Part shown: piece by piece, positions 22,594 through 35,358 of the stretch
How the letters are laid out: every line of letters starts with the position of its first letter
How positions within the stretch are numbered: the first letter of the stretch is position 1
NCBI GenBank assembly: GCA_022828125.1
Contig: JAJEJD010000015.1
Location: 62,001 to 126,000, forward strand
DNA length: 64,000 bases
Reading direction: 5' to 3'
Source: a bacterium
Lineage (GTDB): Bacteria; UBA8248
Program-made: the position numbers and the translations under genes
Notes under the pieces: model-generated
Database searches by the model: none
The model's input: the letters and a program-made list of their open reading frames with translations, nothing else
What the model was told of the DNA's origin: nothing

Positions 22594-22977
22594 ATGGACG
22601 ACGCCGAGAAGAAGGCCCTGATCGGGAAGACCGTCGCCGATCGCGGCTGGGTGCTGCCCGAGCAGGAGTTCTACATCGAAAAGGATCCCGAATACCACGT
22701 ACGCCAAAGCGCGCTCTATAACCACGTCATCAAGCGCGAGGGCGCGCTCTCTGAAAAGATGCGCGAGCTCATCATCATCACCGCCCTTTGCGTGCGCCTG
22801 CCGGGCACGGAGGTGGAAACCTACGTCAAGAACCACATGCGCCGCGCGATGGACCTGGGCGCCACCGAGGATGAGATATTCGAGGCCGTGCAGTGCCTCA
22901 TTTTTCCAGCCGGCGGCCCCTCGCTGATGATGGGCATCAAGTGCCTCCGCGCCGTCCTGGAGGAACGGAAGGCTTAA
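22594..22977 (+). CDS. Carboxymuconolactone decarboxylase (CMD) family protein
   Basis: 127 residues, GGAG seven bases before the ATG. All-helical CMD/AhpD-like fold: KMRELIIITALCVRLPGTEVETYVKNHMRRAMDLGATEDEI is abbreviated here as helix REL...ALCVRL, then a helix with the H of NHMRRAMDLG. The second Cys of the redox CxxC pair is missing (ALCVRLPG), so it is more likely a CMD-type enzyme or binding protein than a disulfide reductase. It heads a three-gene set with the EthD-like protein and the selenoprotein CMD. Confidence 0.75.
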   Translation: MDDAEKKALIGKTVADRGWVLPEQEFYIEKDPEYHVRQSALYNHVIKREGALSEKMRELIIITALCVRLPGTEVETYVKNHMRRAMDLGATEDEIFEAVQCLIFPAGGPSLMMGIKCLRAVLEERKA

Positions 22978-23009: not shown

Positions 23010-23747
23010 ATGGACAGAAGCATCTGGGCGGCCTGGTACGATCTGCCGAAAGAAGACGAGGCCGAATACAACGAGTGGCTCCACCACACCCACATCAAGG
23101 ACGCGCTCAAGCGCCCCGGCTACATGTGGGCGGCCCACTATGAACTCGTGGACCGCGAATCGCCCAAATCGAAGAAAAAAGACCATCTCGCCTACACGGA
23201 CGACCCCTCGATTCCAAACGGCACGGAGTTTCTGCTGCTCTTCGGGGGCACGAGTGCCGAGGTGTTCCTGAGTCCCAACCCCGCGCAGCTTGCAGAGACC
23301 TATTCCGACGAGACGAAGGCGATGATCGCCAAGCGAATCGGCGAGCGCACCGGTATCTTCACCGAGGTGGACCGGGTGAACGGCCCCGCCGCCGCCACCC
23401 GCGCTCTCGGCGGCGTGCCCGCGCCAATCGTCCAGATGGGAACCTTCAACTGCTTCACGCCGGAAGATGATTTCGACTTGAGTTCGTGGTACGCGCAGGA
23501 CCGCCTGCCCGCGATGAAGTACATGCGCGGCTGCGTGGGCACCCGCAAGCTGGTCTCCGTGGCGGGATGGGCGAAGCACTCCATCTTCTATGAGTTCGCC
23601 TCGCTGGAGATGGTTCTCGAACACTTCCCGCGCGCGGACAAGCTCTTCCCCGGCGAAAACGACTGGTCGTACCACGTATGCCAGCGCCTGCTCCACGCCC
23701 CCGGCTCGCCCACGCGCGGCAAGCGCATCTGGCCGCCGGTCGAATAA
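23010..23747 (+). CDS. Tandem EthD/Dabb-like alpha-beta barrel protein
   Basis: 245 residues from the ATG at 23010 (GGGGAGG upstream). It seems to contain two ferredoxin-like domains of the dimeric alpha/beta-barrel type: WAAWYDLPKEDEAEYNEWLHH near the N-terminus and FNCFTPEDDFDLSSWYAQDR near residue 150. Each strand-helix unit is followed by an aromatic-rich helix end. Proteins of this fold act as small monooxygenases, dehalogenation accessory proteins or isomerases. No catalytic residue is certain. Its place between two CMD genes suggests a shared catabolic task on a small ring or lactone compound. Confidence 0.6.
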   Translation: MDRSIWAAWYDLPKEDEAEYNEWLHHTHIKDALKRPGYMWAAHYELVDRESPKSKKKDHLAYTDDPSIPNGTEFLLLFGGTSAEVFLSPNPAQLAETYSDETKAMIAKRIGERTGIFTEVDRVNGPAAATRALGGVPAPIVQMGTFNCFTPEDDFDLSSWYAQDRLPAMKYMRGCVGTRKLVSVAGWAKHSIFYEFASLEMVLEHFPRADKLFPGENDWSYHVCQRLLHAPGSPTRGKRIWPPVE

Positions 23748-23763
23748 AGCGGAGGACGCGCGC

Positions 23764-24447
23764 ATGAACTACATGAAACCTATCCGGGTCGACGAGGCCG
23801 AAGGCGAAGCCGCGAAACTATTCGAGGGCGTGACGAAGATGCTCGGCCGCGTGGCGAATTCCTTCGCCGTCATGGCCTATCAGCCCCACGTCGCCAAGGT
23901 CATCCTGCCGCTCACCGTCACCCTCATGCGCGAGGGGCTGGGCACGGTGCTGCCCACCAGGATCAAGGAGATCGCCGTCATCAAGACGAGCCACCTGAAC
24001 GGGTGCGACTACTGACTCGGGCACAACACGGCGCTCGGTCGAGACGCCGGGGTGACGGAAGAGCAGGTGCAGGAAATCTGCTCGGACGCCTATATGGATT
24101 CCGAGACGATGACCCCGAGGGAGAAGGCCGCCGTCCTGTGGGCGGAGCACGTGACGCTGAACACCGCCAAGACGCGCGACGACGTGTTCTGCGAAGTGCG
24201 GCGCCACTTCGATGACCGCGAATTCGTCGAACTCACGATGGTCATCACCTATTTCAACATGAGAAACCGCTTCCAGGACGCCCTGCGCATTCCGCTGGAT
24301 GAGCCGAAAACGATATCCGGCATCACCATCGGACGCAGGCAGGACCCCGAGAATCTGAAAGCCTATCTCGCGGAGGTGGTGGCGGGGTGGCCCGAGAGTT
24401 TCCCAGGGCCAGGGGATGAAGATGATGAAAAACCTTCGATTTCGTGA
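23764..24447 (+). CDS. Selenoprotein of the CMD/AhpD-like family (in-frame UGA read as Sec)
   Basis: Read through the TGA at 24013-24015 the frame gives 227 residues, with GGAGG before the ATG. The TGA is codon 84 and falls at the second position of the redox motif: C81-D-Y-U84-L-G-H-N, where AhpD-like proteins have CxYCxxHN. Coding bias and similarity continue without a frame change on both sides (KEIAVIKTSHLNG before, TALGRDAGVTEEQV after). A stem-loop with a GGUC loop follows the UGA by 22 bases (24029-24049). Such CxxU CMD/AhpD-like proteins are known among bacterial selenoproteins and probably act as thiol-dependent oxidoreductases. A plain nonsense mutation is the alternative. Confidence 0.85.
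24029..24049 (+). promoter_or_regulatory. SECIS-like hairpin downstream of the UGA codon
   Basis: CGGCG pairs with CGCCG and CTC pairs with GAG, with one bulged A at 24044 and a four-base apical loop GGTC (24037-24040). The loop guanines are 22-23 bases after the TGA, within the distance used by bacterial SelB-dependent elements, and GU in a small apical loop is the known recognition feature. It lies inside coding sequence, as bacterial SECIS elements do. Confidence 0.7.
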
Positions 24448-24499: not shown

Positions 24500-24787
24500 G
24501 GGGTTGTTGGCAAAGGCCCCCCTGAAAGGGGATTGGGGAGTTCACGGCAAGGAGGGACGAGGGGTTCGGAGAGAATCATGCTTCACTCACTCTCCCATAG
24601 CTTAAAAAGCAACCCCCCCTACCCCCCCTTGTCAGGGGGGTAAGAAAAAGCAAAGCCCCCTCAGTCCGGCGGGGACGCATCGCCTTTTTATACCCCCCTG
24701 ACAAGGGGGGGTAGGGGGGGTTGCCTTTATGGGGTTTCCCTTTCAAGGGAGTTGCCATTACCCTCTGTGGACTTTTTCAACAGCCCC
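24500..24787. mobile_element. MITE-like palindromic element, copy B
   Basis: Outer ends GGGGTTGTTGG and CTTTTTCAACAGCCCC; inner palindrome 24609-24724 with the same centre and orientation as copy A. It fills most of the gene-free 24448-24818 between the selenoprotein gene and the first MaoC gene. Confidence 0.75.
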
Positions 24788-24818: not shown

Positions 24819-25262
24819 ATGAACGAAAAACCCGATTTCGTATGGGAGAATCTGGAAGTCGGCATGACGATCGGCGAGCGCAGCCTCACGGTGACGCAGG
24901 CGATGGTGGACGCGCACTGCGACGCCGTGGGCGCAAAGCGGGAGTGGTACCAGGGGGATTCCCCCGCGGGCGGGGCCATCGCGCCGCCCATGATATTCAT
25001 CAACGACCTGCTCGCCATCTATGATGCGAACTACAAGCGCTTCGGCACCATCCACGCCAAGCTCGGCTACCGCTTCCACAGGCCGGTGCGCGTCGGCGAG
25101 ACGGTGCATCAGAAAGTCACGGTGACCGACCTGTACGTCAAGCGCGAGAAGGGCTGGATCGTGAGCGAGTTCGCCGTCACGAACGAGGCGGGGGAGTTGC
25201 TGCTCACCTCCTCGCACACTTCCGTCCTGAGCCTCACGAGAAGGCATGAAAAAGATGACTGA
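24819..25262 (+). CDS. MaoC-like hydratase, FAS1-type N-half
   Basis: 147 residues, AGGAGG upstream. Single hotdog domain: an N-terminal segment VWENLEVGMTIGERSLTVTQAMVDAHCDAVG, then GAIAPPMIFINDLLAIY and YRFHRPVRVGETV. It lacks the D...H hydratase pair, like the non-catalytic half of heteromeric enoyl-CoA hydratases of the MaoC type. It overlaps the next gene by 17 bp, and the two likely form a heterodimer or tetramer acting on an acyl-CoA. Confidence 0.7.
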   Translation: MNEKPDFVWENLEVGMTIGERSLTVTQAMVDAHCDAVGAKREWYQGDSPAGGAIAPPMIFINDLLAIYDANYKRFGTIHAKLGYRFHRPVRVGETVHQKVTVTDLYVKREKGWIVSEFAVTNEAGELLLTSSHTSVLSLTRRHEKDD

Positions 25263-25686
25263 TACGCTGCTCGAAAACCTGGAGCCGGGAGACGCCCTCC
25301 CCGAGCGGACGCACGAGGTGGACTGGGAGGACATCCTCAAGTTCAACCGCTACGTCACAGGCGGCGTGGATACGAAGAACATCCACACGGACGATGAAGT
25401 GGCGCGGAAAGCGGGCCTGCCCCGGGCGGTGGCGACGGGCCGCCACCCGGTCTCGTTCATCACGGAACTCATGGTCGATCACTTAGGCTTCGGCTTCATC
25501 ACGGGCGGTGAGATCGATGTATCCTTCGTCAAGCCCATATTCCCGGGCGACGTTCTGACGCTTCAGGCTGTGCTCAAGGAGAAAACACTCGACCAAGGCG
25601 CCACACATTATCTCTTCGACGTATCGCTCACGAACCAGGAAGGCGCAGCCGTAACGGTCGGCACTGCCGGCGCCCGACTCGCCTAA
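25246..25686 (+). CDS. MaoC-like hydratase, catalytic half
   Basis: 146 residues. Hotdog domain with RYVTGGVDTKNIHTDDEVARKAG and ATGRHPVSFI, which places an Asp and a His at the hydratase-2 positions (D in VDTKNIH, followed by the IH motif). IDVSFVKPIFPGDVLTL is the usual third strand region. It probably hydrates an unsaturated acyl-CoA together with the product of 24819-25262. It is followed after 9 bp by the acyl-CoA synthetase gene, so the three are one transcript. Confidence 0.75.
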   Translation: MKKMTDTLLENLEPGDALPERTHEVDWEDILKFNRYVTGGVDTKNIHTDDEVARKAGLPRAVATGRHPVSFITELMVDHLGFGFITGGEIDVSFVKPIFPGDVLTLQAVLKEKTLDQGATHYLFDVSLTNQEGAAVTVGTAGARLA

Positions 25687-25695
25687 GTCCCACGC

Positions 25696-27804
25696 ATGAG
25701 CGCGCGCGAATCCCTGGTCAGCCTGTTTCACCCGAAATCATTTGCGGTGGTGGGCGCAGCCTCGGATCTCAACCGCCTGGGCGGCATCCCCTTGCGGTTG
25801 ACCATGCGCTACGGCTTTCCCGGCCCCATCTACCCCATCAACCCGAGGCGCGAGGAGATTGCGGGCTTAAAATGCTACCCCGACGTCGCCTCTCTCCCCG
25901 AAGCGCCCGAATTCGCGCTCATCTGCACCCCGAGAGAGGACGTGCTCCCCGCCCTCGCCCAGTGCGCGGAACGCGGCGTGAAGGCCGCCGCCGTCATCAC
26001 GTCCGGCTTTGCGGAAACGGGCGCGGAAGGCGTGGCGTTACAGGAGAAAATCCTGGCGCTCCGCGACAAATCGGGGATGCGCGTGCTCGGCCCCAACTGC
26101 ATGGGCGTCGTGCACGTGCGCTCGAAGCTCATGGCGACGTTCACGATATCCATCCGCGACGACGACCCGCTCATTCCGGGGGCGGTGGCCCTCGTCACCC
26201 AGAGCGGGGCGATGGGGGCGTGCATGCTCACGGGCTTTCAGGAGAGCGGCTCCGGCATCAGCAGCCTCGTGAGCCTCGGCAACGAGGTGGACGTCGATTT
26301 CGCGGAATGCGTCGAATACTTCATCGACGACCCGCACACGCGCGTCATCTGCGGGTATCTCGAATCCGTGCGCGACGGCGAGCGCCTGAGGCGCGCCGCC
26401 CTGCGCGCGCTGGAGCGGGATAAACCCATCGTCCTCCTCAAAGGCGGCAAGACCGAGGAGGGCGCGCGCGCCGCGCGAAGCCACACCGCCGCCATCACGA
26501 CTTCGAGCGACGTTTTCGACGCCTTCGCCGCGCAATACGGGATTCAGGTGCTCGAATCCATGGATGAGTTCATCGAGATAGCGGATTTCCTAGCGCGCAG
26601 CAAACCCATCGAAGGAAACGGAGTGGGGATTTTAAGCTTCTCGGGCGGACTGGGTTCGCTCGCTGCGGACTTAAGTACCGAGGCGGGCCTCACGCTCCCC
26701 ATCCTCGCAGGGGAAACACAGGAAAAACTCGCGGGCGTCCTCCCCGACTACGCGCCCAAGGACAATCCGGTGGACCTCGTATCCCTCATGGTCAGCAAGC
26801 CCGAGAGCCAGCCGCTCAAGACGGCGGGAGAGGCCGTGGCGCGGGATGAGAACGTGGACGCCCTGCTCTTCATGATGGGCGTCTATCACCACGTGGGCGA
26901 GCAGATAGCGGCGGAGGTGAAGGCGCTGTTCGAAGCCTCATCGGTGCCCGTCGCCTTCGCCTGGCTCACCGGGCCGCGCGAGCAGATACAAAACTTAAGG
27001 AAAGCCTCCGTGCCCGTATTCGGCGATTATTCGAGAGCGATTCGCGGGCTGGAATCCCTCCTCTCGCTCAAAAACGCGCGCGAGGCGGCCGCCTCCCGGC
27101 CCCGCTTGGTCGACACGGCGCGGGCGGAGCAAGCGAAGCGACTCATGCGAGAGAGTATTCCCTCTCCCGACGGCTTTCTTCCGGCCGAGACCTGTGCGGA
27201 AATTCTCGATCTCTACGGCGTCCCGAGACCGAAGGAGACCCTGGTTGAAACGTCCGAAGAAGCGCTCAAAACGTGGGAAAATTATAAAGCGCCCATCGCC
27301 CTCAAGGTCGTATCGGACAACCTCTCGCACAAGACGGAAGCGGGCGGCGTCATTTTAGGTCTTAACACGCCTGATGAGGTTCTGTGCGCAGCTCAAAAAC
27401 TGCTAGCCCTCAGCTATGATGCCCGCCTTCTGGTTCAGGAGATGATCGAGGGCGGCCTGGAACTCCTCGTCGGCGTATCGAACGACCCGACGTTCGGCCC
27501 GTGCGTCACGGCGGGGCTGGGCGGCGTGTACGTGGAGGCATTAGACGACGTGGCACGCCTGCTTCCGCCTTTCGAGGCCAATGAGGCCGCGCGCGCGCTG
27601 TCGGGCCTCCGCTCGCGCGTCATTTTCGAGGGCTTCCGGGGCGGGCCGGCCGTTCAAATTCCGCACATATCCGATATAATGGTCAAAATCTCCGAACTGG
27701 CGACGGAGCTTGGGAACGATGTCGCCGAGATGGACTTGAACCCGCTCATCGCCACGGCGGAGGACTGTATCGCCGTGGACGTTCGGATAAAGACTCATTC
27801 CTGA
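25696..27804 (+). CDS. Acyl-CoA synthetase, NDP-forming (acetate-CoA ligase family)
   Basis: 702 residues in one chain. In order: a CoA-binding Rossmann domain (FHPKSFAVVGAASDLNRLGG), the succinyl-CoA-ligase-like domain with ARSHTAAITTSSDVFDAF (catalytic His in the SHT motif), and a C-terminal ATP-grasp domain (APIALKVVSDNLSHKTEAGG, LLVQEMIEGGLELLVGVSNDP). It converts an organic acid, ATP (or GTP) and CoA into acyl-CoA, or runs in reverse to make ATP. The acid is unknown; the neighbouring MaoC hydratases and dehydrogenases suggest it feeds a beta-oxidation-like route. Confidence 0.88.
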   Translation: MSARESLVSLFHPKSFAVVGAASDLNRLGGIPLRLTMRYGFPGPIYPINPRREEIAGLKCYPDVASLPEAPEFALICTPREDVLPALAQCAERGVKAAAVITSGFAETGAEGVALQEKILALRDKSGMRVLGPNCMGVVHVRSKLMATFTISIRDDDPLIPGAVALVTQSGAMGACMLTGFQESGSGISSLVSLGNEVDVDFAECVEYFIDDPHTRVICGYLESVRDGERLRRAALRALERDKPIVLLKGGKTEEGARAARSHTAAITTSSDVFDAFAAQYGIQVLESMDEFIEIADFLARSKPIEGNGVGILSFSGGLGSLAADLSTEAGLTLPILAGETQEKLAGVLPDYAPKDNPVDLVSLMVSKPESQPLKTAGEAVARDENVDALLFMMGVYHHVGEQIAAEVKALFEASSVPVAFAWLTGPREQIQNLRKASVPVFGDYSRAIRGLESLLSLKNAREAAASRPRLVDTARAEQAKRLMRESIPSPDGFLPAETCAEILDLYGVPRPKETLVETSEEALKTWENYKAPIALKVVSDNLSHKTEAGGVILGLNTPDEVLCAAQKLLALSYDARLLVQEMIEGGLELLVGVSNDPTFGPCVTAGLGGVYVEALDDVARLLPPFEANEAARALSGLRSRVIFEGFRGGPAVQIPHISDIMVKISELATELGNDVAEMDLNPLIATAEDCIAVDVRIKTHS

Positions 27805-27817
27805 CGAGAGGAACCGC

Positions 27818-28252
27818 ATGAGCACGAGAATCACGCCCGAAATACGCGCCCTGGTGGGGCGAAAGCACGGCCCCTACCGCGTGAGGGTCGAGCAGGGGGC
27901 GATTGAGAAATTCGCGGACGCGGTCGGTGACGAGAACCCCGCCTATCGCGGACCCGACGCTATCGCGCCGCCGACGTTTCCCACCACCTTCCGGCCCAGG
28001 GACGCCTATCCCGACTTGCCACCTAGTTTCGGCGACGTGGGCCTCCATGCTTCACAGGTCTACGAGGTCGAGCGGCCCATCCGCGCGGGCGATGAACTGG
28101 ACGTTTCCTTCACCATCGTGGACATCACCGAAAAATCGGGCCGAACGGGCGATCTCGTCTTCGTGGAGCGTGAATACGAGTTTACCGATGCGCGCGACGG
28201 CTTTCGCGTGGGCGGCGGCAAGTGGGTGTCGCTCAGGCGCTTCAGGAACTGA
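27818..28252 (+). CDS. MaoC dehydratase N-terminal-domain protein
   Basis: 144 residues, GAGAGGAA upstream. The start TPEIRALVGRKHGPYRVRVEQGAIEKFADAVGDENPAY and the later PPTFPTTF follow the FAS1/MaoC-N pattern, with a proline-rich turn before the central helix. HASQVYEVERPIRAGDELDV is the usual beta region. It lacks the catalytic D/H pair, which is supplied by the next gene 10 bp downstream. The pair repeats the organisation seen at 24819-25686. Confidence 0.75.
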   Translation: MSTRITPEIRALVGRKHGPYRVRVEQGAIEKFADAVGDENPAYRGPDAIAPPTFPTTFRPRDAYPDLPPSFGDVGLHASQVYEVERPIRAGDELDVSFTIVDITEKSGRTGDLVFVEREYEFTDARDGFRVGGGKWVSLRRFRN

Positions 28253-28262
28253 GGGAGAGACC

Positions 28263-28664
28263 ATGAAATACCAGAAGGGCGACGCACTCCCCGAACTCGT
28301 GAAAGACCCGGTTTCGCGGACGCAGCTCGTGAAATACGCCGGCGCAAGCGGGGATTACAACTCGATTCACTATGACGATGAGGCGGCGCGTGCGGGCGGT
28401 CTGGAAGGCGTCATCGCCCACGGGATGCTCTCGATGGGCTTTCTGGGGCAATTCGTCGAAACCACCTTCGGCGCGGGAAGCTACAAGAGGCTCGAGGTGC
28501 GCTTTCAGGGCATGGTGAAGCTGGGCGAGGTCATCACCTGCCGGGGCGTCGTGACCGATCTAGCAGAAGAGAATGGCCGGGAATACGCCGCCTGCGACAT
28601 CGAGGCGGTAGACTCAGAAGGCCGCGTCGTCACCAAGGGCGAGGCCCAGGCCTGGCTGGACTGA
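28263..28664 (+). CDS. MaoC family hydratase, catalytic half
   Basis: 133 residues. The hydratase-2 motif is intact: YAGASGDYNSIHYDDEAARAGGLEGVIAHGML is represented by GDYNSIHYDD (catalytic Asp and His) and IAHGML. LEVRFQGMVKLGEVITCRG follows. It probably works with the FAS1-type half at 27818-28252 as an enoyl-CoA hydratase. The SDR and alcohol dehydrogenase genes downstream would oxidise the resulting hydroxyacyl product. Confidence 0.82.
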   Translation: MKYQKGDALPELVKDPVSRTQLVKYAGASGDYNSIHYDDEAARAGGLEGVIAHGMLSMGFLGQFVETTFGAGSYKRLEVRFQGMVKLGEVITCRGVVTDLAEENGREYAACDIEAVDSEGRVVTKGEAQAWLD

Positions 28665-28692
28665 ATCCACAGAACGGAAAGAGAGGAACTCC

Positions 28693-29436
28693 ATGAGACT
28701 GAAAGACAAGAACGCCCTCGTTACGGGTGCGGCGCAGGGCATCGGACGCTCTGTCTGCCAGAGGTTCGCCGAAGAAGGCGCCAAGGTCCTCGTCGTCGAC
28801 ATGAACGAGGAAGGCGGCGAGGAGACGGCGCGCCTGATAAGAGAAGCCGGGGGCGAGGCGCTCTTCCACAAGGCCGACGTGAGCAGCCTTGCGGAAGTCG
28901 AGGGCGCGCTCGACGCGTCCGAGGCCGCGCACGGGCCCATCGACGTCATGGTGAACAACGCAGGGATCGTCCGCGCGGCCATGCTCCACAAGATGAGCGA
29001 GGCGCAGTGGGACTCCGTGATCGCCGTGCATCTCAAGGGCACCTGGACGGGAATCCACGCGGCGGCCAAGCGCATGATCCCCCGGAAGGAGGGCCGCATC
29101 ATCAACGTCACCTCGGGCGCGGGGCTTCGCGGCACCATCGGGCAGATCAACTACTCCTCCGCCAAGATGGGCATCGTCGGCGCCACACAGAGCGCGGCGC
29201 GTGAGCTTGGACGCTACAACATCACCGTGAACTGCGTCTCGCCCGCGGCCATCACCCCGATGACGGAGACGATCCGCACGGACGAGCGCTTTGAATCCAA
29301 GTATCTGGAGCGCATCTGCCTGGGCCGGTGGGGCGAGCCCGAGGAGATGGCGGCGGGGTTCGTCTTTCTGGCGTCGGACGAGGCGAGCTACGTGACCGGC
29401 ATCGTGCTCCGAATCGATGGCGGCCTGGGGATGTGA
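28693..29436 (+). CDS. SDR family oxidoreductase (FabG-like)
   Basis: 247 residues, GAGAGGAAC upstream. Classical short-chain dehydrogenase: cofactor motif TGAAQGIGRS near residue 12-22, NNAG at about 91, catalytic Ser in NVTSGAG and Tyr/Lys in INYSSAKMG, and the C-terminal YVTGIVLRIDGGLGM. The acidic residue after beta-2 (VVDMNEEGG) favours NAD. It probably oxidises a 3-hydroxyacyl-CoA or similar alcohol made by the neighbouring hydratase pair. A REP palindrome begins just after the stop. Confidence 0.88.
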   Translation: MRLKDKNALVTGAAQGIGRSVCQRFAEEGAKVLVVDMNEEGGEETARLIREAGGEALFHKADVSSLAEVEGALDASEAAHGPIDVMVNNAGIVRAAMLHKMSEAQWDSVIAVHLKGTWTGIHAAAKRMIPRKEGRIINVTSGAGLRGTIGQINYSSAKMGIVGATQSAARELGRYNITVNCVSPAAITPMTETIRTDERFESKYLERICLGRWGEPEEMAAGFVFLASDEASYVTGIVLRIDGGLGM

Positions 29437-29439
29437 TTT

Positions 29440-29467
29440 GTAGGGACAGGTCGCGACCTGTCCCTAC
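29440..29467. repeat. 28-bp REP palindrome, copy 1
   Basis: Perfect palindrome GTAGGGACAGGTCG joined to its own reverse complement. Identical or nearly identical copies are at 32084-32111 and 36027-36054, all just after a stop codon. It can form a stable hairpin in mRNA and is typical of sequences spread by REP-associated transposases, one of which is at 35428-36030. Confidence 0.85.
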
Positions 29468-29572
29468 GGGAATAACCCTCGCTCCCCACCCCTCGTCTGG
29501 CATCCCCACCACGGGCCTGCTAGAATCGCCGCAGGTTTTGCCCCTTGATAACAAAAAGCGGAGGAACCGCCC

Positions 29573-30601
29573 ATGAAGGCCATGATCCTTAAAGAGTTCG
29601 GCGCGCCCCTCGTCTACGAGGAAGCGCCCGAACCCAAGATCGGCCCCCGCCAGGTGCTCGTCGAATCGAAGGCGAACGGCCTTTGCGCGACGGACCTGAA
29701 GATAGTGGACGGAAGCGTCAAGACCGCCCCCACGCCCCTGATGCTCGGCCATGAGAATTCCGGCGTCGTGCTGGAAGTCGGCGCGGAAGTCGAATCCGTC
29801 GCCCCCGGCGACCGCGTGGTCGTCGTGAGCAAACAGACCTGCGGACGCTGCCGCATGTGCCGCCTGGGTCATGAGGAGATGTGCCTGAACTCGCCGGGAC
29901 GGCTGGGCATCGAGATAGACGGCGGCTTCGGCCAGCTCGTCGCGGCGTCTGAGCGGAATCTCGTGAAAATCGGGGACAACGTCTCCCTGGCGGCGGCCTC
30001 CCTCATCGGCGGGACGCTCGGCTCCCCGCTCCACGCCATCCGCATGGCGCGGCCCGAACTCGGCGAGTGCGCCGTCATCTTCGGGGTCGGGGGACTGGGT
30101 CTGCACGCCCTGCAAATCCTCCGCCACCTGGGCGCGAACGTCATCGCCGTGGACGTGAAGGAGGAAAAACTCGCCAAGGCGCGCGAACTGGGCGCGTTCG
30201 AGACCGTGAACGCGATGGAGACCGACCCTGTGAAAGCCGTGATGGACATCACGAACGGTTTCGGGGCAGACATCGCGCTCGAGATCGTCGGCGGGGCCGC
30301 CGTGCCGCCCGTGCTCCAGCAGTGCATCGACCTGCTCCGGCCCGGCGGGCGGCTCGTCATCCTGGGCTACTCCTTCGGCCAGAAGGTGGAGATCGACCCC
30401 GCGCAACTCGTCTACAAGTGGATACAGATCGTCGCGTCGCACAACCACACCGTGCGCGACGTGAGCGATGCCGCGAGCCTGGTGAACGACGGCCGCGTGC
30501 GCGCCGTCATCACCGAGGAAGCCCCGATGCCCGACGCCAACGACGCGCTGGCCGCCCTGCGCGCGGGCGACCCGGTGGGCCGCATCGTTCTCACGTGGTG
30601 A
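29573..30601 (+). CDS. Zinc-dependent alcohol dehydrogenase
   Basis: 342 residues, GCGGAGGAA upstream. MDR family: catalytic zinc ligands C38-like ([12 protein letters not shown]) and GHENSGVV, structural zinc cysteines [15 protein letters not shown], and NAD-binding [17 protein letters not shown] followed by DVKEEK, where the Asp favours NAD. Substrate unknown; threonine/sorbitol-type and fatty alcohol dehydrogenases look alike. It lies in the acyl-CoA cluster but has about 135 bp of non-coding sequence upstream with a REP, so it may be transcribed separately. Confidence 0.87.
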
Positions 30602-34224: not shown

Positions 34225-35358
34225 ATCAACGAATCCCATCAAGACCCCAAATTCCTGCATGACCTCGGCGTCCGCCGCGTCATCAGCGCGCGCACCCGCC
34301 AGACCGTCTTCGGCGGCTCGAAGCTGAGGCCTGAAATATGGGCCGCCATGCAGGAGGCGAACGCCGCCCAGGTGGACATGAACGAACTCCACGCAAAGGC
34401 GGGCGCGCGTATCGCGCAGATGACGCAAAACGAGGCGGCCTACGTCACGAGCGGCTCCGCCGCAGGCCTCGCGCTAAGTGCTGCCGCCTGCATCACCGGC
34501 GGAAACCCGGCCCTCATGGACAAGCTCCCCTTCACCGACGGTCTCAAGAACGAGATCGTGGTCCACCGCTTCCAGCGGAACCACTACGACATCAACATCC
34601 GCCAGGCGGGGGCGCGGCTCGTGGAGATCGGCTCGCACCGCCAGACCCACCCCTGGGAGCTAGAGGAGGCCATCGGCGAGAAGACGGCGGCCGTCTTCTA
34701 CTTCCCGGGTCAGTACATGGGCCGGAACATCCTGAAGCCGGAGACCATCATCGAGATCGCGCACGAGAGGAACGTGCCCGTGGTCGTGGACGCGGCGGCG
34801 CAGCTTCCGCCGTCCGCCAATCTCTGGCGCTACACCAAAGAGATGGGGGCCGACGCCGCCATCTTCAGCGGGGGGAAGAGCATCGGCGGACCGCAGAACA
34901 CCGGAATCATCCTGGGCAAAAAGAAGATCGTCGATGCCTGCGCCATGATGGGAAGCCCCAGGTATTCGGTCGGACGGCCCATGAAGGCGGGGCGCGACGA
35001 CATCGTGGGCCTGGTCCGCGCGCTCGAACATTACCTGGACGAGGGCGAGGCCGCCCAGTACGCCCACAACGAGCGGTGGTGCGAGTTCTTCATGGAGCGC
35101 ACAGCCGGGATGAAAGGGTTATCCCCTCGCCTCAGACGCCCAAACGCCCTGGGACAGGATTTGCCCGAAGTCGTGATCGATATCGACGAGGAATCGCTCG
35201 GGAAATCGCGCGATGAGATCGCCGCTTCACTATGGGAATGCGAGGTGCGGGTGCAGGTCGGCGTATCGGGTGAATCGGAGATCTACATCTCCCCCGACCC
35301 GCTCACGGATGCAGACGCGGAATACCTCTGGGCGAGGTTTGTGGAGGTTGTGTCGTAG
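34225..35358 (+). CDS. SelA-like PLP-dependent enzyme (aminotransferase class V fold), probable AUC start
   Basis: 377 residues if initiated at the ATC at 34225. This codon has AAGGAG seven bases upstream, and it is the only placement that includes the family N-terminus (LGVRRVISARTRQTVFGGSKLRPE). The first in-frame ATG (34348) would remove it. The PLP lysine is in FSGGKSIGGPQNTG, the SelA-like signature, after PVVVDAAAQLPPS. Relatives include selenocysteine synthase, D-glucosaminate-6-phosphate ammonia-lyase and L-cysteine-type lyases. It is too short and lacks SelA N-terminal features, so it should not be taken as SelA. Substrate unknown. Confidence 0.75.
   Translation: MNESHQDPKFLHDLGVRRVISARTRQTVFGGSKLRPEIWAAMQEANAAQVDMNELHAKAGARIAQMTQNEAAYVTSGSAAGLALSAAACITGGNPALMDKLPFTDGLKNEIVVHRFQRNHYDINIRQAGARLVEIGSHRQTHPWELEEAIGEKTAAVFYFPGQYMGRNILKPETIIEIAHERNVPVVVDAAAQLPPSANLWRYTKEMGADAAIFSGGKSIGGPQNTGIILGKKKIVDACAMMGSPRYSVGRPMKAGRDDIVGLVRALEHYLDEGEAAQYAHNERWCEFFMERTAGMKGLSPRLRRPNALGQDLPEVVIDIDEESLGKSRDEIAASLWECEVRVQVGVSGESEIYISPDPLTDADAEYLWARFVEVVS

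What the first reader, a model, noticed from the sequence alone, without database searches (positions are those of the whole stretch)
23764..24447. Probable new selenoprotein: CMD/AhpD-like protein with CxxU at the redox site
The frame from 23764 runs into TGA at 24013-24015 exactly at the second Cys position of the CxYCxxHN motif, and continues in the same frame for 144 more codons with family-like sequence. A hairpin with bulge and a GGUC apical loop sits 22 bases after the UGA, where bacterial SelB-type SECIS elements lie. A mutation would be unlikely to hit that one codon and to be followed by such a hairpin. CxxU AhpD-like proteins are known from marine metagenomes. The pairing here with an EthD-like protein and a Cys-poor CMD paralogue looks unreported to me.
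Basis: partly seen in the sequence, partly recalled or inferred. Interest (0 to 1): 0.85.

Follow-up and report, generated by a model that had tools for sequence, protein, structure and literature searches.

The report
AhpD-like selenoprotein in a sponge bacterium
The gene's apparent early stop codon is almost certainly read as the rare amino acid selenocysteine at the active site of a known type of redox protein, in a group of sponge- and sea-dwelling bacteria that carry about a dozen such genes each.

Summary
The finding holds. TGA at 24013-24015 lies at the second Cys position of the C-x-x-C site in one continuous AhpD/CMD gene (23764-24447). In 41 of 41 homologous loci from public genomes (Nitrospinota, Tectimicrobiota, Alphaproteobacteria, Actinomycetota) the same column is TGA; a related paralogue and two tandem partners have Cys there. 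The genome has selA, selB, selC and selD, the last also with an in-frame TGA. The hairpin after the UGA is a real conserved RNA element: its upper stem covaries, and its GGU loop and stem override codon preference (Gly GGT 43/50 against 7% elsewhere in the same genes; Gln CAA 33/33 against 24%). Two tandem Cys partners have lost it. So: a SelB-decoded selenoprotein, probably a selenol-based hydroperoxide or disulfide reductase.

AhpD-like CxxU selenoproteins have been known since 2005, so this is a new member, in a subfamily without its own NCBIfam model. Less expected is the copy number: about 14 CMD-type genes with in-frame TGA in this 3.9 Mb genome (11 well supported), one with two conserved TGAs (U-Y-G-U), and repeated pairing with an unnamed 245-residue DABB-fold protein. 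'EthD-like' fits that neighbour at fold level only. Substrate, electron donor and actual selenium insertion are untested.

The parts
23764..24447 (+). AhpD/CMD-type selenoprotein gene, 227 residues, Sec at residue 84 (C81-D-Y-U84-L-G-H87-N88)
   Evidence: CMD Pfam match 45.7 bits over its cut-off; AhpD fold; 41 homologues with TGA in the same column
24013..24015 (+). UGA codon decoded as selenocysteine
   Evidence: TGA in 41/41 homologous loci; Cys in related paralogue L075 and in tandem partners in L107 and L108
24029..24049 (+). bacterial SECIS-type hairpin; upper stem 24034-24036/24041-24043, apical loop GGUC 24037-24040, bulged A 24044
   Evidence: Covariation and slide controls; codon choice forced by the hairpin; lost in Cys partners
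23751..23756 (+). likely ribosome-binding site GGAGGA
   Evidence: Sequence itself
22594..22977 (+). small CMD paralogue (127 aa, no CxxC), upstream in the same operon; a CMD2-like gene lies beside the focal gene in the orthologous loci L025-L034
   Evidence: Pfam CMD 40.1 bits; synteny
23010..23747 (+).
   Evidence: AlphaFold model pLDDT 86, Foldseek, no Pfam family, neighbourhoods
24819..30601 (+). downstream catabolic-type genes: MaoC/FAS1-DH hydratases (24819, 25246, 27818, 28257), acyl-CoA synthetase (25696-27804), SDR (28693-29436), zinc alcohol dehydrogenase (29573-30601)
   Evidence: Pfam; order from the MaoC genes to the SDR kept in the orthologues of the same genus as far as the loci reach

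Best explanation
The gene makes a 227-residue AhpD/CMD-superfamily selenoprotein. SelB carrying Sec-tRNA binds the GGUC-loop hairpin just behind the UGA, so the ribosome inserts selenocysteine at residue 84 and then ends at the second UGA, which has no such hairpin. Sec84 is the C-terminal member of the redox pair Cys81-x-x-Sec84, beside Tyr83, His87 and Glu69. It most likely acts as the attacking selenol that reduces a peroxide or other oxidised or electrophilic substrate, resolves through a Cys81-Sec84 selenenylsulfide, and is recharged by a thiol donor. The operon around it (DABB protein, small CMD protein, hydratases, acyl-CoA synthetase, SDR, alcohol dehydrogenase) suggests a role in breaking down an organic compound. 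Shown by sequence comparison: the conserved TGA, the RNA element, the Sec machinery, the family and the fold. Inferred: actual selenium insertion, the reaction, the substrate and the electron donor.
For: TGA in 41/41 homologous loci from several phyla. selA 576 bits, selB 384.5 bits, tRNA-Sec 75.9 bits and selD 334.9 bits (with an in-frame TGA), all over their cut-offs and all on contig C30. selA over cut-off in 19 of 24 genomes tested, against 1 of 14 control genomes. SECIS upper stem: 97.4% of cells paired, 10 double changes against 2.3 in shuffles (0/500), slid versions at most 61.5% paired. Third base of the Leu/Val codon is T with CAA in 33/33 and C with CGN in 17/17; Gly GGT 43/50 against 7% elsewhere; CAA 33/33 against 24%. 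SxxC tandem partners keep Cys at the Sec column, have lost the GGU loop, and branch inside the Sec clade. Mostly synonymous changes on both sides of the TGA. AhpD family by sequence and by fold, pLDDT 91.7. In AhpD both Cys are required, with a Glu-Cys-His/Tyr-Cys-His relay (PMC3141380). SelA and SelB co-occur in most symbiont bins of the sponge Aplysina aerophoba; the source bin of orthologue L029, bin107, comes from that study (PMC5649159).
Against: No selenium labelling or mass spectrometry exists. Three homologue-bearing genomes lack selA over cut-off (the one reached as both G016 and G051, plus G049 and G052); these are drafts, but the G016 draft is rated 98% complete. His sits at +3 after Sec (CxxUxxHN), not at +4 as in classical AhpD (CxxCxxxH), so the proton relay is not identical. 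The GGU loop also coincides with a conserved Gly, so the amino-acid and RNA constraints partly overlap, although the codon bias is far beyond that.
Confidence: 0.95

Rival explanations
1. The selenoprotein is real, but its chemistry is reductive dehalogenation or another electrophile reduction, like the homologous debrominase Bmp8, rather than peroxide reduction; Sec would attack the halogen as in iodothyronine deiodinase.
For: Bmp8 (6ohi, 6ohj) is among the best sequence and fold matches and shares CxYCxxH spacing. The operon is catabolic. Close relatives live in marine sponges (PMC5649159); halogenated sponge metabolites are general knowledge.
Against: The Bmp8 residue mutated in the substrate complex (Cys82) aligns with Cys81 here, not with Sec84. 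Peroxidase-related AhpD proteins match equally well or better. No halogen-related gene was seen nearby.
Confidence: 0.12
2. The TGA is a true stop: a truncated 83-residue protein with a separate downstream ORF (GTG 24052) or a decayed gene.
For: TGA is a normal stop in this genome, including the one that ends this gene; a GTG-started ORF exists downstream.
Against: TGA kept in 41/41 loci, purifying selection on both sides, a covarying hairpin and full Sec machinery.
Confidence: 0.02
3. Sequencing or assembly error (TGC or TGT in reality).
For: The public relatives are metagenome-assembled drafts and raw reads were not seen.
Against: The same TGA is found in many separately assembled genomes and in nine hairpin-bearing paralogues of this genome.
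Confidence: 0.005
4. The UGA is decoded as Trp or another residue (genetic code change or natural suppression).
For: The frame is open under TGA=W.
Against: Other genes in the window end at TGA; the column is Cys, not Trp, in the non-TGA relatives; Sec machinery and SECIS are present.
Confidence: 0.005

Closest known systems
AhpD-like CxxU selenoproteins, TIGR01926 / COG2128 and CMD PF02627 (PMC1088965, PMC2398784, PMC13188914)
   Same: CxxU at the redox site with Sec in the second position, AhpD/CMD fold, SelB-type hairpin, marine bacteria
   Different: Scores 65.8 bits against the TIGR01926 cut-off of 81.8; a separate subfamily with a C-terminal extension and CxYUxxHN, strongly multiplied in this lineage
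NF053654 GroundWater_YciW, YciW-related (seleno)protein (NCBIfam)
   Same: Best NCBIfam match, full-length, also a (seleno)protein; matched by 28/28 aligned members
   Different: 75.6 bits against a cut-off of 310; not a member
Debrominase Bmp8 (PDB 6ohi, 6ohj)
   Same: Homologous, same fold, CxYCxxH motif
   Different: CxxC not CxxU; Bmp8 Cys82 aligns with Cys81, not with Sec84; activity unknown here
AhpD-like PA0269 of Pseudomonas aeruginosa (2o4d, 2ijc) and M. tuberculosis AhpD
   Same: CxYC or CxHC pair, Glu 12 residues before the first Cys (Glu69 here), helical hairpin
   Different: Sec in place of the second Cys; His at +3 instead of +4; longer protein

Membership tests
SelB-dependent bacterial selenoprotein | In-frame TGA at a position that is Cys in homologues | tested here: met
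   TGA 41/41; Cys in L075 and in the SxxC partners
SelB-dependent bacterial selenoprotein | selA, selB, selC and selD in the genome | tested here: met
   All over cut-off on contig C30
SelB-dependent bacterial selenoprotein | Hairpin close behind the UGA with G in the apical loop, conserved as RNA | tested here: met
   fold energy of the single sequence inconclusive
SelB-dependent bacterial selenoprotein | Selenium actually inserted | not testable with these tools
   Needs mass spectrometry or 75Se labelling
AhpD/CMD superfamily | PF02627 / AhpD core domain over cut-off | tested here: met
   PF02627 45.7 bits (cut-off 23); TIGR00778 33.9 (cut-off 27.8)
AhpD/CMD superfamily | All-helical AhpD fold | tested here: met
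   AlphaFold pLDDT 91.7, best Foldseek matches AhpD proteins, target TM up to 0.85
Classical AhpD (CxxCxxxH relay) | Glu, Cys, Tyr/His, Cys, and His four residues after the second Cys | tested here: not met
   Glu69, Cys81, Tyr83 and Sec84 fit, but His is at +3 (H87) and Asn at +4 (compared with PMC3141380)
TIGR01926 peroxidase-related enzyme | Score over the curated cut-off | tested here: not met
   65.8 against 81.8; some paralogues pass
NF053654 GroundWater_YciW | Score over the curated cut-off | tested here: not met
   75.6 against 310
Gamma-carboxymuconolactone decarboxylase (PcaC, TIGR02425) | Match to the PcaC model | tested here: not met
   No match for the focal protein at E 0.001; PMC3141380 says gamma-CMDs lack CxxC
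Bmp8-type debrominase | Reductive debromination with Cys82 as catalytic residue | not testable with these tools
   Homology only
EthD (neighbour gene 23010-23747) | Pfam EthD match | tested here: not met
   No EthD match up to E 0.5; DABB-type fold only

The most novel reading that the evidence does not exclude
One bacterial family of marine and sponge environments has turned the AhpD/CMD fold into a multi-enzyme selenocysteine toolkit: about a dozen Sec paralogues per genome, including a conserved double-Sec U-Y-G-U form, several working with the DABB partner protein as two-part enzymes that reduce different substrates, perhaps peroxidised or halogenated sponge metabolites.
Probability: 0.12. 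Interest if true: 0.7.

Novelty: new member of a known kind. Interest (0 to 1): 0.45.

Why it matters
Standard annotation would cut this protein, and its relatives, at the active site, so a large redox enzyme set in abundant uncultured symbionts stays hidden. The PMC13188914 review holds that aerobic bacteria rarely keep selenoproteins, whereas this lineage keeps many copies of one selenoprotein fold next to superoxide dismutase, peroxiredoxin and catabolic genes. That makes it a test case for why Sec is kept. The SECIS covariation, with codon choice bending to RNA structure, and Cys partners that dropped both Sec and hairpin, form a clear natural experiment.

Tried and rejected
Viral contigs: no relatives. 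Rfam on the neighbourhood: only tRNAs; weak microRNA hits on a GC-rich repeat at 24605-24725 are chance. The second selA hit (window about 34597-35058) is far below cut-off and is not selA. TAL-effector hits of profile A2 in the PDB are short low-complexity matches and were ignored. Literature searches for selenoproteins in Tectomicrobia gave no paper; searches on sponge or Nitrospinota selenoproteomes gave no selenoproteome study. The Bmp8 paper and the Haft 2025 and Olavius selenoproteome papers are not in the library. An obligatory DABB/Sec-CMD pair was rejected: DABB genes also occur alone or in tandem. Stem pairs below the upper stem are less consistent, so only the upper stem is claimed as conserved.

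Full report
WHAT IS THERE. The frame from ATG 23764 runs through TGA 24013-24015 (residue 84) to a stop TGA at 24445-24447. The read-through product is a CMD/AhpD protein: PF02627 45.7 bits, AhpD core TIGR00778 33.9 bits, both over cut-off. Profile A2 built from its relatives matches AhpD-like structures and the debrominase Bmp8. The AlphaFold model (pLDDT 91.7) has the AhpD fold. The TGA stands exactly at the second Cys of CxxC. Two small corrections: 143 codons follow, not 144, and it is the loop of the hairpin, not its foot, that begins 22 bases after the UGA.

IS THE TGA READ AS SELENOCYSTEINE? Four independent lines say yes. (1) The genome, reached as G000, has selA, selB, tRNA-Sec and selD, all above curated cut-offs on one contig; selD itself has an in-frame TGA. 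(2) A scan of one genome per species returned 41 homologous loci down to 45% identity, and all 41 have TGA in that column; three of them have one further stop in the downstream part of the matched stretch. The search patterns did not include the column, so this was not selected for. (3) Relatives without TGA have Cys there: L075 (CHFC), and two tandem partners in G012 (SAYC) which branch inside the Sec clade. (4) The hairpin is under selection as RNA. In 26 distinct sequences the upper stem is 97.4% paired, with 10 doubly changed cells against 2.3 in shuffles, and falls to 61.5% or less when slid. At codon level, in 50 loci, Gly is GGT in 43 (7% elsewhere in the same genes), Gln is CAA in 33 of 33 (24% elsewhere), and the third base of the preceding codon is T with CAA (33/33) and C with CGN (17/17). 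The two Cys partners have lost the GGU loop. The sequences are related, so these counts are not independent events, but the switch recurs in several clades. Energy of the single hairpin is unremarkable.

SelA was found over cut-off in 19 of 24 genomes tested, against one of 14 controls; homologue-bearing genomes without it are one draft reached as both G016 and G051, plus G049 and G052. G016 is rated 98% complete, and this remains unexplained.

FAMILY EXPANSION. The own genome has 14 CMD-superfamily genes with in-frame TGA at the redox site. Nine share the GGU-type hairpin position (L066-L074; L067 has GGC in the loop). Two more, C15:424056 (CYGU) and C31:177210 (UYGU), are supported by conservation in relatives: both TGAs of the latter are kept in all nine copies found in two genera, the own one included, the others at 52-92% identity. 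Three (C19:195702, C22:353726, C5:117712) are candidates only. All 17 genomes of the same family that were searched have 4 to 22 relatives of the focal protein, mostly with TGA; of 23 other genomes two have a match. Orthologues in sponge metagenome bins include bin107 of Aplysina aerophoba (L029, 95% identity); that study noted that SelA and SelB co-occur in most symbiont bins but not in their reference relatives (PMC5649159).

NEIGHBOURS. The gene order from the upstream dehydrogenase to the downstream MaoC and acyl-CoA synthetase genes is kept within the genus. In other genera a small CMD2-like gene still flanks the orthologue (L030-L034). The 245-residue neighbour is not EthD by Pfam, but its model has two ferredoxin-like domains like anthrone oxidase-like proteins, monooxygenases and chalcone isomerase, so 'EthD-like' holds at the level of the DABB fold. 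It recurs next to Sec-CMD genes of several clades, including Alphaproteobacteria. In the own genome three of five strong copies lie within 60 bases of a Sec-CMD gene. It also occurs alone or in tandem arrays, so the pairing is frequent but not obligatory.

HOW IT MOST LIKELY WORKS. Decoding: SelB binds the GGUC hairpin and delivers Sec at UGA 24013, while the terminal UGA, without such a hairpin, stops translation (inferred from established SelB biology). Chemistry: Sec84 takes the place of the second Cys of AhpD, where both Cys are needed (PMC3141380). Glu69, Tyr83 and His87 surround it; the His is displaced by one residue from classical AhpD and matches Bmp8 instead. I favour a selenol peroxidase or thiol oxidoreductase within a catabolic operon. 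A Bmp8-like dehalogenase is possible, but the residue mutated in the Bmp8-substrate complex aligns with Cys81, not Sec84.

KNOWN OR NEW. CxxU AhpD-like and CMD selenoproteins are in the lists of 2005, 2008 and 2026 (PMC1088965, PMC2398784, PMC13188914). The focal subfamily passes no NCBIfam equivalog cut-off (focal protein). I therefore file it as a new member of a known kind. The multiplication within one lineage and the UYGU form are the less expected parts; in the parts of the 2026 table that I read, stand-alone AhpD/CMD entries are listed as CxxU only.

Noticed in passing
L124:8211-8720 (G000:C31:177210-177719); orthologues L141-L148: CMD/AhpD paralogue with two in-frame TGAs, motif G-U-Y-G-U; both TGAs conserved in all nine copies found, and the sister paralogue has C-Y-G-U at the same columns. 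A possible diselenide redox site.
   Followed up: partly
L107 (G012:C104) and L108 (G012:C49): Tandem arrays of Sec-CMD genes in which one member has S-x-x-C instead of C-x-x-U and has lost the SECIS loop.
   Followed up: yes
L019 (G000:C30:4116-5078): selD carries an in-frame TGA, so selenophosphate synthetase is itself a predicted selenoprotein.
   Followed up: no
L125 (G000:C22:353726), L126 (G000:C5:117712), L122 (G000:C19:195702): Three further CMD-type candidates with TGA at the CxxC site (CDYU in a long two-domain-like protein, CQPU in a short one, CNYU), not checked against relatives.
   Followed up: partly
window 23010-23747; alignment A3; L132, L133, L137: Family of 245-residue proteins with two ferredoxin-like domains and no Pfam family, itself multiplied (up to 18 matches in G012, including weak and partial ones) and often next to Sec-CMD genes.
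   Followed up: partly
window 24600-24725: GC-rich inverted repeat (cccccc...gggggg) behind the selenoprotein gene; similar low-complexity repeats appear on other contigs of this genome.
   Followed up: no
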